DNA of 64,000 bases from a virus, in the IMG/VR virus record IMGVR_UViG_3300032286_001614, positions 1 through 64,000 of that record; one strand, written 5' to 3'. The notes under the pieces are model-generated. The model had not been told where the DNA came from and did no database searches. It saw only the letters and a list, made by a program, of their open reading frames with translations. Every line of letters starts with the position of its first letter. Within the stretch, counting starts at the first letter, position 1. Below, piece by piece: positions 43,974 through 55,602 of this stretch. Both the position numbers and the translations under genes were made by a program.

Positions 43974-44402
43974 ATGAAAAATGAAAATAAAGAAAGTGTC
44001 CAACGTGAACCAGAAGAATTGGTAAGTTCATCAAAATACTTACTTGAATTAATCCAGATGGATTTAAATTTTGGGCGTAATGATACTATTGCTGCGCGAG
44101 CAAAAGCAGCTTTTGAATTAATCTATGAATTAGCTAATTTATATCAAGAAAAATCAAAAAAAGAAATAAATGCAGAAGATGCTATAGATTATTATCAGCA
44201 AAATGGATTTTCTTTTGAAAAACCAAGATCAGTAGGGCTTTATTCTTTTGTTTGCAAAGATTTTGATTGGGAACAAACGCTCGTAGCTATAACAAAAAAT
44301 GATTATCAAATTTTAAATGTTCACTGTGCTAAAATAGGCGAAAAATCTGTTGATCAATATTCAAATGATGTTAAATTTCCAATGTGGAAAAAATTAGCTT
44401 GA
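43974..44402 (+). CDS. Hypothetical protein, 142 aa
   Basis: Helical N-terminal half (ELVSSSKYLLELIQMDLNF, ARAKAAFELIYELANLY) and a beta C-terminal half ending FPMWKKLA. Converges with the next gene, overlapping it by 9 bases tail to tail. Family unknown. Confidence 0.65.
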   Translation: MKNENKESVQREPEELVSSSKYLLELIQMDLNFGRNDTIAARAKAAFELIYELANLYQEKSKKEINAEDAIDYYQQNGFSFEKPRSVGLYSFVCKDFDWEQTLVAITKNDYQILNVHCAKIGEKSVDQYSNDVKFPMWKKLA

Positions 44403-46100: not shown

Positions 46101-46112
46101 TTAACTTTAAGT

Positions 46113-46118
46113 TACACT
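46113..46118 (-). promoter_or_regulatory. Late-type element AGTGTA
   Basis: TATAAGTGTAACTT, 13 bases upstream of the lipoprotein ATG at 46100; rightmost copy of the motif. Confidence 0.55.
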
Positions 46119-46343
46119 TATATATGTATATTGATTGTTCGATAAAGGTTTAATTTAAAATTCAACCGGGGATTTTTTCAAATCTACTTTATTAACAGAT
46201 ACCTGTTAATGATTAGATTTTACAAAAAGGGGTATCCCCCTTTTAAGATATGTATAGGGTATATAGAACATTTATTGAGGGAGAATAATAAAGCAAAAAC
46301 TCATCCTGAAGTTGATTAAAGCTTTTTTTCATTAAAAACTTAA

Positions 46344-46418
46344 AATAGTTGAATAAACGGATTTTTCCGTTACATATTGAGAATAGTTCAATAAACACGT
46401 TTTTTTAGTAGAAATTGA
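46344..46418. repeat. Two 37-38-bp tandem repeats (iteron-like)
   Basis: Units at 46344-46381 and 46382-46418 share AATAGTT(G/C)AATAAAC, a run of Ts and an ATTGAG end. They lie beside the TACGTA cluster in a non-coding interval. Confidence 0.65.
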
Positions 46419-46449
46419 GAATAAGGCCCGCCCGCTGGTTTGTCCGCCC

Positions 46450-46743
46450 TACGTAGTTCTACGTATTCAAAAACGGGGTATGGGTAGAAATACGTATCCC
46501 AAACCTTATACGTAGTGATACGTAGCTATTTTGGGTGTCGGACTACGTATTTACACCCACTTTTTTACACCTGTAAATGAATTGTAAAAAATTGATTCTA
46601 TGGGGTTTTTAGACGTTTTTAAGGGTGAACCTATACGAAGGCATACCCCGCAAAAGAAAACGCCTTAAAACGCAAGGAAAGGCCATTTGCTGCGATTTGC
46701 AATTTTATGGCGAAAAGGCCATTTTTCTAGGTGTTTCTACGTA
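46450..46743. repeat. Cluster of seven TACGTA palindromes
   Basis: TACGTA at 46450, 46460, 46491, 46509, 46519, 46544 and 46738 (start positions). Two pairs are 10 bp apart, one helical turn. Far above chance in A+T-rich DNA. Candidate binding sites or origin. Confidence 0.7.
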
Positions 46744-46847: not shown

Positions 46848-47336
46848 TCATTTGCGAGCGGGAAAAAGAGTTTCGTTTTCCTTTACAAACGAATATAATG
46901 TTTGATAAGAATAAAAGTTTAACTCTTTTTCAATCTCCGAAACTTGTTTACCCGCTTTATATAAAGCTTGCGCTTGTTTGATAAAATTTTGCGCTTTCAC
47001 GTTTTCTTTATCATTCAAATCACCTTTGGTAAACTTTACCTTTGAAGATTCTACCTCTTCATTATTCATTCTCCGGCAAATTATTGCGAGGTTTTCAATC
47101 CCGCCTAAAGCGGGTGCAATCTCGCAAAGGATAATGCGGGAAAATTTTTCCTCGTTATTGCCATGAGTTTCCTCATGCTTTCGTTTGGATTCTTCCAAGG
47201 CGGATTCTATAAACTTTTCTGGCAATCCCGCTTCGACAAAAGCTTTTCGCAAACCTTCACCATTGAAAACCGGAGAAGCGGGAATGCTTTTCAAAGCTTT
47301 CATGGCATTAGACAAGGCATTAATAATATCTTTCAT
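46848..47336 (-). CDS. Putative HTH DNA-binding protein, paralogue 1, 162 aa
   Basis: Paralogue of 53907-54398 along its whole length: IINALSNAMKALKSIPASPVF, GLPEKFIESALEE, VKFTKGDLND, ELNFYSYQTLYSFVKEN. The C-terminal part (QVSEIEKELNFYSYQTLYSF) looks like a helix-turn-helix. Residues 85-100 include CEIAPALGGIE. Its stop faces the TACGTA cluster, and its leader is highly structured. A regulator or initiator that binds nearby repeats is a reasonable guess. Confidence 0.65.
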   Translation of the reverse strand: MKDIINALSNAMKALKSIPASPVFNGEGLRKAFVEAGLPEKFIESALEESKRKHEETHGNNEEKFSRIILCEIAPALGGIENLAIICRRMNNEEVESSKVKFTKGDLNDKENVKAQNFIKQAQALYKAGKQVSEIEKELNFYSYQTLYSFVKENETLFPARK

Positions 47337-47361
47337 GATAATAATCTTTCAATAATAAAAA

Positions 47362-47477
47362 ACCTTTCAACGCGAAAGGTAGCGTTTCGTTTTTCAACGC
47401 ACAAACGAACAAAGCGGAAAACTCTCAAAGAACGTGTTGGAATCACTTCCAACAAATAAGAGGAAAAACTTTTCCGC
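47362..47477 (-). promoter_or_regulatory. Structured leader of 46848-47336
   Basis: Inverted pairs ACCTTTC/GAAAGGT (47362-47380), GCGGAAAA/TTTTCCGC (47414-47421 with 47470-47477) and, nested within the latter, GTTGGAA/TTCCAAC (47436-47453). Looks like an RNA leader or complex operator. Bases 47480-47790 further right are A+T-rich with no gene seen. Confidence 0.5.
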
Positions 47478-47794
47478 CGAAAGCTCAAGATCTTTTTCAA
47501 AAAACTTTTATGCGTAGAAACACGTATCTTTTCGCGTGAAAGGAAAACCGGTTGGAAGGCAAATCTTTTCCTAAAAAAAGAAAAGCCATAAGATATTCTA
47601 ATAGTGAATTAAGGATAAATAATATGTAAAGTTACGATTACTATATATACAAGTTACTATTTATTTATTTGTATTTCGTATTTATTTATTCCTATTTATT
47701 ATTTTGTTATTTTGTTATTTGTATTTAGTATTTCTTTATTAATATTTCATATTTGATATTTATTTTTTATTAATATTTATTTGGACACAAAAAA

Positions 47795-48107: not shown

Positions 48108-48160
48108 GCTTTTTTTTTATTTTTTTAAGTATTATTTTTTTATTTTTTTTAAAAAAATGC

Positions 48161-48322
48161 TTGTTTTTTCCGATGGATATGCTATCTTATTATTCTAGTT
48201 AGGACTTATTCTCCTAGCGTGTGACGGATAAAACCGAACGATTGGGGGACCGGAGGCTGGACTAATTCCTCAAATTGCGGGCACGTTTGGAAAATTATAA
48301 CATATTTTCCTTTTAAAGTCAA
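48161..48322 (+). ncRNA. Structured RNA element, copy 1, with convergent promoters
   Basis: Plus promoter TTGTTT (48161) - 16 bp - TATCTT (48183). RNA from about 48194: P1 TCTAGTT/GGCTGGA, P2 AGGA/TCCT around CTTATTC, P3 CGG/CCG around ATAAAA, then the conserved core AACGATTGGGGGACCGGAGG. U-G pairs in P1 and compensating changes against copy 2 support the plus strand. A minus promoter TTGACT-17-TATAAT (48322 leftward) reads back through the element. Not a family I recognise. Confidence 0.65.
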
Positions 48323-49996: not shown

Positions 49997-50047
49997 GCTT
50001 TTTTTTAATTATTTTAATTATTTTTTTTATTTTTTTTAAAAAAACAC

Positions 50048-50212
50048 TTGTTTTTTTCTATTAGTGTGCTATTCTATTTTTCTAGTCAAGGTTTATTCCC
50101 TTGGCGTGTGACCGATAAAACGGAACGATTGGGGGACCGGAGGCTAGACTTTTTTTTTAAAATAAAAAATAGTTTGGAAAATTATAACATATTTTTTATT
50201 TTAAATCAAGTA
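50048..50212 (+). ncRNA. Structured RNA element, copy 2, with convergent promoters
   Basis: Plus promoter TTGTTT (50048) - 16 - TATTCT (50070). P1 TCTAGTC/GGCTAGA (50081-50087 with 50142-50148), P2 AAGG/CCTT, P3 CCG/CGG around ATAAAA, core GGAACGATTGGGGGACCGG. P2 and P3 differ from copy 1 at both sides of pairs, keeping pairing. Minus promoter TTGATT-17-TATAAT at the right end reads back. Confidence 0.65.
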
Positions 50213-50278: not shown

Positions 50279-50696
<418 letters not shown>

Positions 50697-50772: not shown

Positions 50773-51030
50773 TTAAATTAATTCAATCTTTCTATATTCC
50801 AATTTAAACTGTTTAATTCCCTTATACTTTTCTTTTAACTTGGGAATATAAGAATTCGCCTGTGCTTTTGTTTCAAATTCCGTGGCCAAACTCCATGCAA
50901 ATTCGCACATAGAAAAATTTTGAGTCGGCGAATTAATAAAATAAAGATTACGGCGGCAATTAATATCTGTTTTCCCAATGATTGCGAAAACATATTTAAA
51001 TTTTTTATTTCTATTTTTATTTTTACTCAT
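50773..51030 (-). CDS. Hypothetical early protein, 85 aa
   Basis: Basic start (KNKNRNKKFKYVFAIIGKTD), then FAWSLATEFETKAQANSYI and a charged C-terminus. Resembles other tiny phage proteins with a beta-beta-alpha outline. Promoter TTGTTT-16-TATCTT upstream. Unknown function. Confidence 0.6.
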   Translation of the reverse strand: MSKNKNRNKKFKYVFAIIGKTDINCRRNLYFINSPTQNFSMCEFAWSLATEFETKAQANSYIPKLKEKYKGIKQFKLEYRKIELI

Positions 51031-51063
51031 ATTTTTTTGCGGTTAATGGTTGGCTGAATCTAT

Positions 51064-51091
51064 AAGATAGCATAAACAACGAATTAAACAA
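51064..51091 (-). promoter_or_regulatory. Early promoter TTGTTT-16-TATCTT
   Basis: -35 at 51091-51086, -10 at 51069-51064. Lies just beyond the 3' end of the large RNA. Confidence 0.6.
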
Positions 51092-51114
51092 GCTTTTATT
51101 TATTTAATTTTAAT

Positions 51115-51758
51115 TAAAATTAATTTTGCTGCAATATCTGGGTTAACCTAAAACTTTTTAAGGCTGCTGCGTAGGAAATTAAATACAATTTCCCCCTTTA
51201 AATAAAAAGGGAGAAAAGTTATATTATTTACCTGAGTTAACCTTTTTTAAGGTGTGGTGAGGTTTCATTATATAGCAGGGCAACTTATGATTTTTAATCA
51301 TTCAATATTTTATTTATCGCTCAAAACTTACCTCTAAAGCGCGATTGATATTTTTAATTATCAAACGAAATATTGTCCTTATCCGTAGATAAAAGGTCGG
51401 GGGTCAGATATTTAAATTATTAATTTAAATTTTTGATTCATCCCTGCAATGGCATTTATTTATTATTAGCTACGCTAATTTAGTAAAAATAAAATAGTTT
51501 TTTAATTTTCCTAGAATTTGCATTTCGCAGGACTAGGGCACGAAGAAACTTAACTTCGCTGCATTATTTTAATGCCCTTGTAACTCTCCTTATCTTTTCA
51601 GCGCACCCGCTATCATCACGACATGAGGTTTAATTATTTCTAATTCGCTTACTTTCAGAAGTGCCTTCCAATTTTCATTGGATTGGACTTAATCTTTACA
51701 AGTAGATTGTTAAACAGTTAAATTAACCAAAAAGAACTAATTGATCCCGAGTATCAAT
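51115..51758 (-). ncRNA. Large structured non-coding RNA, about 640 nt
   Basis: No credible ORF on either strand. Promoter TTGACA-18-TATTAT (51795-51766) puts the start at about 51758, exactly where the first hairpin begins (51740-51758). Further hairpins read 5' to 3': 51668-51681 and 51632-51645 (both with GAAA loops), 51600-51611, 51541-51558 and 51561-51575, 51510-51537, 51466-51478, 51377-51396 (UACG loop in C-G closing), 51345-51364, 51287-51301, 51240-51253, 51194-51211, 51174-51193. GNRA and UNCG loops appear only on the minus strand. Two segments share GGTTAAC(T/C)CAG. Size and style recall the ornate phage RNAs GOLLD and ROOL, but I could not match either. The 3' end is estimated. 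Confidence 0.7.
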
Positions 51759-51765
51759 CATAAGT

Positions 51766-51795
51766 ATAATACACCTTATTCCTAATAAATGTCAA
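51766..51795 (-). promoter_or_regulatory. Strong sigma70-type promoter of the large RNA
   Basis: Consensus TTGACA at 51795-51790, 18-bp spacer, TATTAT at 51771-51766. Confidence 0.75.
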
Positions 51796-51802
51796 AGTTT
51801 TT

Positions 51803-52321
51803 TCAAATATTTTTAAGAATCTCTACATATTTTTTTCCCCTGCCTCCGGTTTGCTTATACCAGCGCGAATCTTTTAATTCCGCCGCCGCTTTATTATAAT
51901 CTTTCTTTTCAATTGCCGCAGTAAAATCTTTGAATTTTTTAATTCTATTTGGCCCCAGATTGTAAGCTAGGCTTATTAATATTATTTGAACATTTTGTGG
52001 TTGCGAATTGAAAGATTTAAACTGTTTATGCGCAATCTGTTCTGCGATTTTTACATCCTCTTTTAACCATTTATTAAGTAAACAATTATCAATATTTTGC
52101 CCAACCTTATACTTATCTTGTAAACCCTTAGATTCTAAATTTGTTCCGCCACCAACAGTTTTATGTCCAGTCGGGCAAATATATACTTTATTGCTCCATC
52201 CTTCGTATTTAATAATATGCGTTTTAATATTATCGAATGAAGGCGCGGCATTAATAATAGACGCGCCGCCAATAATAATACCGATTGAGATAAGTTTAAG
52301 ATTTTTATAGAATGTTTTCAT
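51803..52321 (-). CDS. Exported endolysin, GH24 lysozyme, 172 aa
   Basis: N-terminal hydrophobic segment (ISIGIIIGGASIINAAPS) is a signal peptide or signal-arrest-release anchor. The muramidase core has Glu40 in KYEGW, Cys49 and Thr55 in YICPTGHKTVGGGTN, the E-8-C/D-5-T triad of phage lysozymes, then SLAYNLGPNRIKKF. It cleaves peptidoglycan at lysis. Read into the large RNA's promoter region. No holin is next to it. Confidence 0.88.
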   Translation of the reverse strand: MKTFYKNLKLISIGIIIGGASIINAAPSFDNIKTHIIKYEGWSNKVYICPTGHKTVGGGTNLESKGLQDKYKVGQNIDNCLLNKWLKEDVKIAEQIAHKQFKSFNSQPQNVQIILISLAYNLGPNRIKKFKDFTAAIEKKDYNKAAAELKDSRWYKQTGGRGKKYVEILKNI

Positions 52322-52971: not shown

Positions 52972-53006
52972 ATTTAGATTTTTTTTAATTTTCTTTAAAA
53001 AAAAGC

Positions 53007-53196
53007 TTGTTTTCTTCTTTGGATATGCTATCTTATTTCCATCGACAGGACTTGTAAGGGGCCAAATTAATGAAACCCCATCTCTCCTGAAAGATTTGAC
53101 CTTTAAAACGGAACGATTGGGGGACCGGAGGCTACGCAAATTTCTTGGGGCACAAGCCCGTTTGGAAATTTTACCACAAAAAAACTTTAATGTCAA
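53007..53196 (+). ncRNA. Structured RNA element, copy 3, with convergent promoters
   Basis: Plus promoter TTGTTT (53007) - 16 - TATCTT (53029). P2 AGGA/TCCT is lengthened by an inner GGGG/CCCC hairpin. The core GGAACGATTGGGGGACCGG is identical to copy 2. P1 is weak here. A GGGC-ACAA-GCCC hairpin follows (53147-53159). Minus promoter TTGACA-17-TAAAAT at the right end reads back. Confidence 0.6.
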
Positions 53197-53840
53197 GCTT
53201 TTTTTTAATTTTTTTTCTGAAATAAAAGAATACCCCTTCCCGCCCTTGGGAAAATATATTATTCCTAGAGCTTGTCAAGCCTATTTTTAAAAAAAATGAT
53301 ACGTATTAATACGTATTTTTAAATAAAAAAAATGCTTGACTTATTTATAATTAACTATATATGCGAATTTTCAAATAGTGATTTTTTAAAAAAAGTCAAG
53401 AATAAAATTAATTATTTTTTTAACCTAAAGATCAGCCCCAGCCCCACCCTGGAAAAATATACTATTTTGCGTAAATGTCAAGCATATTTTTTTATTATTT
53501 TTGCGCTTATATTTATTATTTTTATTAATGTCAAACATATTTTTTAAAAAAAATTTTGTTTATATTTATTATCTAAATTATTGTCAAGCATTTAATTAAA
53601 TTATTTTTTAAGAATTAAGTCCGCCCCAGCCCCACCCCGGAAGTAAATCATAAAACGGTTTGCTTGTCAAGCATATTTTTTATTTATTTTTTTTATTTTT
53701 TTAAAAATTATCTTGACATTATTATTATTTCTGTTATACGCAAATTTAATGAAATTGCGCATTTTAACACAAAATTTAATAAAAGTCAAGCAATTTTTAA
53801 ATTATTTTTTGCCTTATATATTATTATAAATTAATGTCAA
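53191..53840 (-). promoter_or_regulatory. Array of nine minus-strand promoters without a gene
   Basis: TTGAC(A/T) boxes at 53196, 53278, 53399, 53481, 53534, 53587, 53670, 53789 and 53840 (5' ends), each with an A/T-rich -10-like hexamer 16-17 bp on. Spacings are 82, 121, 82, 53, 53, 83, 119 and 51. The three 82-83-bp intervals each hold a G-rich block (53233-53250, 53433-53452, 53621-53640). No coding sequence is seen in the stretch. TACGTA occurs at 53300 and 53310. Confidence 0.55.
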
Positions 53841-53867
53841 ACAATTATTAAAAAAAATATATAATAA

Positions 53868-53898
53868 AAAGGCCCGACTTTTATTAAGTCGAGCCTTT
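53868..53898 (-). terminator. Terminator of 53907-54398
   Basis: AAAGGCCCGACTT / AAGTCGAGCCTTT hairpin with TTATT loop. Confidence 0.8.
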
Positions 53899-53906
53899 GT
53901 TTTTAA

Positions 53907-54398
53907 TTAATTACGCTTAGGAAAAATTTCTTTATTATCACGAATAAAACTATTCAGCGTCGCATAAGAATAGAAATTTAATTTTTCCACAATTTCACTA
54001 ACTTGCTGATTATTATCATTATAAAGAATCTTAACTTTATCTAAAAAGTTTTGGGATTCTTTATTATTTAAATCAGACAATTCTTTAATAGTGAATTTGA
54101 CCTTAGAATTTTCAATTTGCTCATTTTTAATTGTGCGAATTAAAGAAGAAAACTCTTCGATCCCACCCAGAACAGGAATAATTTCATTAAGAATAATACG
54201 AGCGATTTTCTGAGTATTATCGCCGTGAATTTCATTATGTTTATTACGCAATTCTTCAATTGCGCTATTAACAAACTTTTCTGGCAATCCCATTTTAGAA
54301 AATTCAGCTTTAATATTGCTATCGTCAAAAATTGGCGATGCAGGAATATTTTTAATATTCTTAACGGAGTTTTGCAGGGCATTAATAATTTCTTTCAT
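53907..54398 (-). CDS. Putative HTH DNA-binding protein, paralogue 2, 163 aa
   Basis: Paralogue of 46848-47336 (IINALQNSVKNIKNIPASPIF, GLPEKFVNSAIEEL, VKFTIKELSDL, KLNFYSYATLNSFIRDN). Same putative C-terminal HTH. As with paralogue 1, TACGTA sites lie on its 3' side. Leader has CCAATTT/AAATTGG (54441-54469) pairing. Duplicated regulator candidate. Confidence 0.65.
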   Translation of the reverse strand: MKEIINALQNSVKNIKNIPASPIFDDSNIKAEFSKMGLPEKFVNSAIEELRNKHNEIHGDNTQKIARIILNEIIPVLGGIEEFSSLIRTIKNEQIENSKVKFTIKELSDLNNKESQNFLDKVKILYNDNNQQVSEIVEKLNFYSYATLNSFIRDNKEIFPKRN

Positions 54399-54948
54399 AA
54401 CAATCTTTCTTTTTTTATATATAGGTTAATAATAACAAATCCAATTTTTTAAAAAATCGCACAAATTGGTTAAGCGGAAAAATAATAATAACAGGCGCAG
54501 GAATTTTTTAAACCCTATCCCAGCGCATTCGACTTTCAAAAAGCAAACCTAGCATGGATAACGAAGTAATTTTCCGCGTTATGGTCAATCTTTTTTTTAA
54601 AAAAAACATGGGTATTTCTACTTAGAAAAATATGTCATTTTACCTCTGAAAAAACATCATTTTAAGCATCATTTTTAATAGGGGAAATATGATAAAAAAA
54701 TATATAATATTATGTTTTAAAAAATGAGATAATAAATAGAAATGAATGCCATTACCCTCCCCCCTCTCAATCTTTATTTATTTATTTATTTGTCGTTTAT
54801 ATTTCATTAATATTCCATGAGTATTTTATCTATTCCCTATTGTTATTTCCCCCTATATATTTATCTCATTTGTTTTATTGTCTATATATAATATAATTGA
54901 ATAGAGTGATTTATTTGTTATTTTTATGTTGTAATAATTATGTTTTAA

Positions 54949-55010
54949 TTAAATCAAATAATTACATAAATCTCTTACAATAAGAGTTATATAGAAATTA
55001 TTTGATTTAA
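54949..55010. repeat. Nested inverted repeats
   Basis: Perfect 15-bp arms TTAAATCAAATAATT (54949-54963) and AATTATTTGATTTAA (54996-55010) enclose CTCTTA-CAA-TAAGAG (54972-54986). Confidence 0.8.
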
Positions 55011-55551
55011 TATTTTTGTTCAATTTTCCTTTGATTTATTTGCTCAAATTTTGAGCATATTATAGCATAAAAAATGAAGCACAAATGAGTAAAAAAAATG
55101 AATAAAAAAAACGACTAAAATTAAGTAAGAATTTGCCGTTCTAAATGTCCCATTTTATTAAGTGATAATTCCAAAATTATATTGTAAAATTAATATTTAT
55201 TTTTGATTTACGATAATAAAATTCATTATTTTAGTGTAAATGAAATCCGCTGATTATTTGCCATTTAATAATTTCAATAATAACCTTAATAGTTAATTTT
55301 GCAAATAATCTTATCGTTTATTAAACTTAGCTTTTTTTATTTATAAAATAGCCGATTTTTAGCCTTCTGAAAGTAGGGTCTGAAAATGGCAATTTTTGCC
55401 TCATTAAATGCCCGCAAATGGTGTTTTAACGCATTAAAAAGGTGCAAGGGTAGTCTGGACTAGGTTAAACGCTAGAAAACGCGCCAAAACGTAAGGAAAA
55501 TGCTTATTGAGAACGTGTCTCATCTAAGGGTAAAAAAATATATAAATAAAA

Positions 55552-55576
55552 AAATCCACCCGATTTATGGATGGAT
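55552..55576 (-). terminator. Terminator of 55603-55962
   Basis: AATCCA...TGGATT hairpin followed by Ts on the minus strand. Confidence 0.6.
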
Positions 55577-55602
55577 TGTTTTATGTTAAACTATTATCTT
55601 TT

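What the first reader, a model, noticed from the sequence alone, without database searches (positions are those of the whole stretch)
51115..51795. Large ornate non-coding RNA of about 640 nt upstream of the endolysin stop
Seen: no ORF, a consensus promoter (TTGACA-18-TATTAT) whose start coincides with the first hairpin, and about a dozen hairpins with GAAA and C(UACG)G loops on the minus strand only. Known: GOLLD and ROOL are phage-borne RNAs of similar size that form large assemblies. Inference: this is a member of such a class or a new one, perhaps highly expressed.
Basis: partly seen in the sequence, partly recalled or inferred. Interest (0 to 1): 0.85.

Follow-up and report, generated by a model that had tools for sequence, protein, structure and literature searches.

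The report
Orphan candidate phage noncoding RNA gene
Next to the lysis-enzyme gene of an uncultured, probably marine, virus of bacteria lies a stretch of about 650 bases that makes no protein but has its own start signal and looks like a gene for a large folded RNA; no relative of it could be found, so its fold and function remain unproven.

Summary
On the minus strand, just 3' of a phage lysozyme/endolysin gene, 51,759-51,110 has no ORF of 40 aa or more on either strand, stop codons at chance density and no protein-family match. It has an 11/12 sigma70-type promoter (TTGACA-18-TATTAT) 8 bases after the endolysin stop, and the next gene has its own promoter at its end. Three perfect GAAA/UACG-capped hairpins lie on the minus strand and none on the plus; no other 650-base tile of the window, on either strand, reaches three.

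The inference of an 'ornate' RNA is not established. Total folding energy is no better than several coding stretches, long-range helices are as frequent in shuffles, and the plus strand folds equally well. Rfam (GOLLD and ROOL included) gives nothing. Searches of viral and bacterial collections found no homologue, and the only close relative contig ends 3.3 kb short, so covariation could not be tested.

Best reading: an independently transcribed phage lncRNA, analogous in size and setting to phage K lnc001, of unknown class (about 0.55). Rivals: UTR or unconserved spacer.

Better supported in passing: a covarying hairpin leader in front of a paralogous gene family.

The parts
51803..52321 (-). 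endolysin/lysozyme-like gene (172 aa), immediately upstream of the RNA on the same strand
   Evidence: PHROG endolysin/lysozyme families, best E 3.7e-16; 78 viral loci encode relatives, mostly 26-34% identity
51766..51795 (-). promoter TTGACA-N18-TATTAT, preceded by AAAACT; expected start about 51,759
   Evidence: 11/12 consensus; AACTTTGAC, similar to the AAGCTTG(A/T) promoter heads of neighbouring genes
51110..51759 (-). candidate non-coding RNA, about 650 nt; 3' end not defined (no T-rich terminator)
   Evidence: no ORF, stop density at chance, no protein families, unique in the record
51739..51759 (-). first hairpin, 7 bp (GATTGAT / ATCAATT), P=0.91
51141..51728 (-). predicted closing helix, 10 bp: 51728-51719 with 51150-51141, P=0.85 (prediction only; such long helices also arise in shuffles)
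   Evidence: caution
51667..51682 (-). GAAA-capped hairpin TCCAAT-GAAA-ATTGGA, P=0.98
51632..51645 (-). GAAA-capped hairpin AATTA-GAAA-TAATT
51451..51576 (-). predicted multibranch domain closed by GGCATT/AATGCC (P=0.78), with hairpins CGAAG...CTTCG (P=1.00), CCTAG...CTAGG (0.96), ATTAGC-GTA-GCTAAT (0.93)
   Evidence: model R1 (51,502-51,634) finds no homologue in 160 loci or 50 whole records/genomes
51275..51447 (-). predicted multibranch domain closed by GCAGGG/CCCTGC (P=0.74), containing the C(UACG)G hairpin near 51,394-51,377 and CAATATTT/AAATATTG (0.88)
   Evidence: model R2 finds no homologue in 81 sources or 28 whole records/genomes
51189..51216 (-). strong 11-bp hairpin TTTCTCCCTTT-TTATTT-AAAGGGGGAAA; flagged terminator-like but with a poor T tail (TTGTATTTAA)
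51064..51091 (-). separate promoter of the next gene: TTGTTT-N16-TATCTT, preceded by AAAAGC
   Evidence: site starting 51,095
50773..51030 (-). next gene (85 aa, unknown function), with its own promoter; rival owner of the region as a 5' leader

Best explanation
The region is a stand-alone phage gene for a long non-coding RNA of about 650 nt, transcribed on the minus strand from its own promoter just after the endolysin gene and ending before the next gene's promoter (anatomy shown; transcription inferred). The RNA probably folds into several hairpin domains, perhaps closed by a terminal helix (predicted, not proven), and acts in trans as a structural or binding RNA: a scaffold or sponge made during infection, like the abundant phage lncRNAs near lysis or tRNA regions of other phages (inference by analogy). 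It is not a member of any Rfam family.
For: Empty of ORFs on both strands with chance stop density. 11/12 promoter directly after the endolysin stop and a separate promoter for the following gene, in a neighbourhood of small genes that often carry their own promoter and hairpin terminator. Strand-specific excess of perfect GAAA/UACG hairpins: 3 on minus, 0 on plus, about 0.001 of shuffles, not reached by any other tile of the window. G+C 31%, against 23-25% in most other ORF-free stretches nearby. Precedent: phage K lnc001, a 635-nt intergenic RNA reported with the highest read count (PMC9241854), lies outside Rfam and has a similarly modest folding z of -1.8, so weak energy does not speak against it.
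Against: No homologue, so no conservation or covariation. Global folding energy is not exceptional and not strand-specific; coding stretches of this phage reach z = -2.2 to -3.3. Long-range helices are as common in shuffles. No good terminator at the 3' end. Promoter consensus matches are frequent in this AT-rich DNA (47 found against 42 expected at 9/12). One other ORF-free stretch (46,101-46,624) has equal G+C.
Confidence: 0.55

Rival explanations
1. Unselected intergenic spacer or fully decayed gene: hairpins are what AT-rich DNA gives by chance, and the promoter-like site is incidental or serves something else.
For: Folding energy in the range of coding windows; long-range helices as in shuffles; stop density at chance; promoter-like sites near chance number in the region; no conservation found.
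Against: 650 bp of spacer is long for a compact phage; the best-type promoter sits exactly at its 5' edge; tetraloop excess on one strand; no family match in any frame to suggest a decayed gene.
Confidence: 0.25
2. Cis-acting untranslated region: the long 3' UTR of the endolysin mRNA and/or a long 5' leader regulating the downstream 85-aa gene (50,773-51,030).
For: Same strand and directly between the two genes; no good terminator between the region and the next gene; this phage does have long structured leaders before other genes (47,337-47,480 and 54,399-54,540).
Against: Its own promoter after the endolysin stop and a separate promoter for the 85-aa gene; other small genes in this region have short leaders.
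Confidence: 0.15
3. Divergent member of the GOLLD/ROOL class of RNA nanocages, too far from the Rfam models to score.
For: Similar size (ROOL model 574 positions), phage origin, lysis-gene neighbour; GOLLD and ROOL form RNA-only cages (PMC12286853).
Against: No Rfam match at E<=10 with relaxed filters; ROOL and GOLLD family searches of the whole record do not hit the region; no tRNA genes in the window; no pseudoknot or covariation evidence.
Confidence: 0.05

Closest known systems
Phage K lnc001 (Kayvirus, 635 nt, minus strand; PMC9241854)
   Same: Length about 635-650 nt, phage intergenic, no ORF annotated there, outside Rfam, modest folding energy (z -1.8).
   Different: lnc001 adjoins a tRNA-Met gene and is known from RNA-seq to be abundant; it has none of the strict GAAA/UACG 5-bp hairpins. 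Our region has no tRNA nearby and no expression data. Model R2 run on the whole phage K record gives no match.
ROOL RNA (RF03087)
   Same: Large phage-borne RNA of similar size with many hairpins.
   Different: No match to the model; ROOL is often near tRNA islands and forms an octameric cage (PMC12286853); neither feature is seen or tested here.
GOLLD RNA (RF02032)
   Same: Large phage RNA; GOLLD is upregulated at lysis (PMC12286853), and this RNA sits beside an endolysin gene.
   Different: No match at the region; best hit in the record is a 19-nt chance match at 44,206; GOLLD members often exceed 800 nt and have a conserved 3' region.
OLE and HEARO RNAs
   Same: Large ornate bacterial RNAs.
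   Different: No hit among all Rfam families at E<=10 other than noise from unrelated families.

Membership tests
ROOL (RF03087) | Match to the Rfam covariance model | tested here: not met
   all Rfam, E<=10; family search of whole record: no match; note that the 14 control genomes also gave none
ROOL (RF03087) | Location near phage tRNA genes (frequent, not universal) | tested here: not met
   no tRNA in the 64-kb window
ROOL (RF03087) | Homo-octameric RNA cage | not testable with these tools
   needs transcript and cryo-EM or native gel
GOLLD (RF02032) | Match to conserved 3' region model | tested here: not met
GOLLD (RF02032) | Raised expression during lysis | not testable with these tools
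   no RNA-seq
Phage long non-coding RNA (general kind) | Intergenic interval of hundreds of nt without ORF on either strand | tested here: met
Phage long non-coding RNA (general kind) | Own promoter | tested here: met
   (consensus match only)
Phage long non-coding RNA (general kind) | Transcript detected | not testable with these tools
   no RNA-seq available
Structured RNA family (any) | Covarying base pairs across homologues | not testable with these tools
   no homologue found:
Structured RNA (any) | Folding energy beyond shuffled sequence, specific to the strand | tested here: inconclusive
   z about -2 to -3 on both strands; coding windows +0.5 to -3.3

The most novel reading that the evidence does not exclude
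A new class of large, multidomain, independently transcribed phage RNA (about 650 nt), closed by a terminal helix and expressed with the lysis gene, that works as an RNA-only assembly or trans-acting scaffold, unrelated in sequence to GOLLD, ROOL or any Rfam family, in a phage of probable Bacteroidota hosts.
Probability: 0.15. Interest if true: 0.75.

Novelty: new member of a known kind. Interest (0 to 1): 0.4.

Why it matters
Large phage-encoded RNAs such as GOLLD and ROOL form RNA-only cages of unknown function. A further unrelated example in an uncultured, probably marine, phage would show that phages invented such RNAs several times. As it stands the evidence is for a candidate only: it tells experimenters and metatranscriptome miners where to look, and shows how little Rfam covers of phage lncRNAs (phage K lnc001 is not there either).

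Tried and rejected
Homologue searches that gave nothing usable: blastn of the region against 50,697 phage genomes (only 25-37 nt chance matches), against 50 whole viral records (short AT-rich chance matches) and 395 genomes of the class of a Flavobacteriales MAG (one 44-nt AT-rich chance match, L191, inspected). A 17-mer pattern in IMG/VR hit one place, inside a coding gene. Two stop-masked pseudo-protein scans of IMG/VR and one of GTDB genomes were used as degenerate DNA searches: no confirmed relative. Neighbour genes were used to find syntenic contigs: endolysin (relatives 26-34% identity, apart from two matches over about 48 residues), vWA/HNH gene (none), portal, paralog gene and a concatenate of small neighbours (none). 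Only IMGVR_UViG_3300017723_001475 and 3300017778_004702 are close, and neither covers the region. Covariance models R1 and R2 from the single sequence over loci and whole records/genomes: best non-self R1 hit, L088 4967-5087, lies in a gene. Rfam at E<=10: only eukaryotic, viral and other unrelated families at noise level. Decayed gene: rejected for lack of any family match. Extra sequence of the relative contig L160 (1,021-2,530) holds an unrelated 213-aa ORF, not this RNA. Long-range closing helices first looked impressive, but shuffles give as many. G+C: 31% against 23-25% in most spacers, but 46,101-46,624 is 32%, so not decisive.

Full report
WHAT IS THERE. The window is 64 kb of a 71,745-base IMG/VR virus record. 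Its genes include a terminase large subunit apparently carrying an inserted domain (inference from the 1,045-aa length and its PHROG matches), a portal-like protein whose closest named-phage match is only 18.6% identical, and a lysozyme/endolysin (51,803-52,321 minus). Between the endolysin stop and the next gene (50,773-51,030 minus) lie 772 bases without an ORF of 55 aa or more on either strand; at a 40-aa cut-off nothing overlaps 51,058-51,802. Stop codons occur at the density expected by chance in all six frames, with one minus frame above it, and stop-masked translations match no Pfam (all six frames) or PHROG family (three minus frames).

TRANSCRIPTION UNIT. An 11/12 sigma70-type promoter, TTGACA-18-TATTAT, starts 8 bases after the endolysin stop. 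The following gene has its own promoter, AAAAGCTTGTTT-N16-TATCTT, at 51,095-51,064. Several neighbouring small genes show the same arrangement: an AAGCTTG-headed promoter in front and, often, a hairpin terminator behind. The RNA interval lacks a good terminator; the 11-bp hairpin at 51,216-51,189 has a poor T tail. The transcript is therefore inferred to span about 51,759 to between 51,189 and 51,110.

STRUCTURE. Partition-function folding predicts about 20 helices of at least 4 bp, a 10-bp closing helix (51,728-51,719 with 51,150-51,141) and two internal multibranch domains. I tested this against shuffles. Total energy: z about -2 to -3 on both strands, not better than several coding windows of this phage. 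Confident helices: 15 against about 10 in shuffles; long-range helices: 3 against about 3. So the overall fold is not evidence by itself. What does stand out is the strand-specific set of perfect hairpins capped by GAAA, GAAA and UACG: 3 on the minus strand (0.29 expected, about 0.001 of shuffles), 0 on the plus strand, and no other 650-base tile of the 64 kb on either strand reaches 3.

RELATIVES. None was found. DNA searches of phage genomes, 50 whole viral records and 395 bacterial genomes, a 17-mer and two degenerate pattern scans of IMG/VR, a degenerate scan of GTDB genomes and two covariance models all gave chance matches only. The nearest relative phage (portal 92% identical) is known only from contigs that stop at window position about 47,770 or earlier.

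COMPARISON WITH KNOWN RNAs. No Rfam family matches the region above noise even at E=10; ROOL and GOLLD searches of the whole record do not hit it. No tRNA gene lies in the window, unlike the usual setting of GOLLD and ROOL (PMC12286853). The closest known object in kind is phage K lnc001, a 635-nt intergenic RNA reported as having the highest number of reads (PMC9241854); it too is outside Rfam and has an unremarkable folding energy (z -1.8), which shows that weak energy does not rule out a real phage lncRNA.

HOST. None of 24 inspected gene starts carries a Shine-Dalgarno sequence, and the promoters have the form TTG-N19-TAnnTT. Both are Bacteroidota-like (inference; PMC6847099 for the missing Shine-Dalgarno). 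Flavobacteriales bins carry 35-40% identical portal genes, but so do bins from other phyla.

VERDICT. An independently transcribed phage lncRNA is the best reading (0.55); spacer or decayed DNA (0.25), a UTR (0.15) and a divergent GOLLD/ROOL (0.05) are the rivals. The claim of an ornate, assembling RNA is possible (about 0.15) but unsupported by any comparative evidence.

A BETTER-SUPPORTED STRUCTURED RNA NEARBY. In front of two paralogous genes in the window (46,848-47,336 and 53,907-54,398 minus) and two genes of the relative contig L160 (424-924 and 1,663-2,304) lies a leader with the invariant frame TTCCGCTT-[arm]-GTGCG...-[arm']. The 7-8-bp arms are TTCGTTT/AAACGAA, CCAATTT/AAATTGG, GTTTGTTT/AAACAAGC and TCTCACTT/AAGTGAGA, that is, compensatory changes at several pairs among four sequences. 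The pattern is found only at these sites in the window (0 expected) and in one locus, L160, of 191. This is a plausible new cis-regulatory RNA and deserves its own examination.

Noticed in passing
window 47,337-47,480 (-), 54,399-54,540 (-); L160 290-433 (+), 1520-1662 (+): Conserved structured leader TTCCGCTT-[arm]-GTGCG..-[arm'] before paralogous genes, with fully compensated 7-8-bp arms in all four copies; in three copies a second hairpin with a GCGTT or TGCGCTT loop follows. Candidate autoregulatory or riboswitch-like element.
   Followed up: partly
window 48,112-48,274; 49,999-50,161; 52,981-53,145: Three 77-86% identical copies of an element of about 160 bp with a promoter at each end pointing inward (minus AAGCTTGACTTT..TATAAT, plus CTTGTTTT..TATCTT) around the core AACGATTGGGGGACCGGAGGCT; may encode overlapping sense/antisense small RNAs. 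No match to the 50,100-50,170 core region among phage genomes.
   Followed up: partly
window 53,150-53,900 (-): Cluster of about eight TTGAC(A/T) promoter-like sites in 700 bp, each preceded by GCTTG or similar, with G-rich CCAGGGTGGGGCTGGGGC motifs repeated between them; purpose unknown.
   Followed up: no
window 54,453-55,602: Second long stretch (1,150 bp, 25% G+C) free of ORFs of 55 aa or more; sampled part folds with z -2.4 (minus) and -3.3 (plus). Could be an origin or another RNA.
   Followed up: no
L160 1,663-2,304: The closest relative contig carries, between conserved genes, an extra more G+C-rich 213-aa ORF with the same leader motif as the paralog family.
   Followed up: partly
window 50,440-50,470: A run of TTA/AAT trinucleotide repeats links two overlapping minus-strand ORFs; one reads as a poly-Asn stretch, a possible phase-variable junction.
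   Followed up: no
window, 24 gene starts: No Shine-Dalgarno sequences and TTG-N19-TAnnTT promoters suggest a Bacteroidota host.
   Followed up: partly
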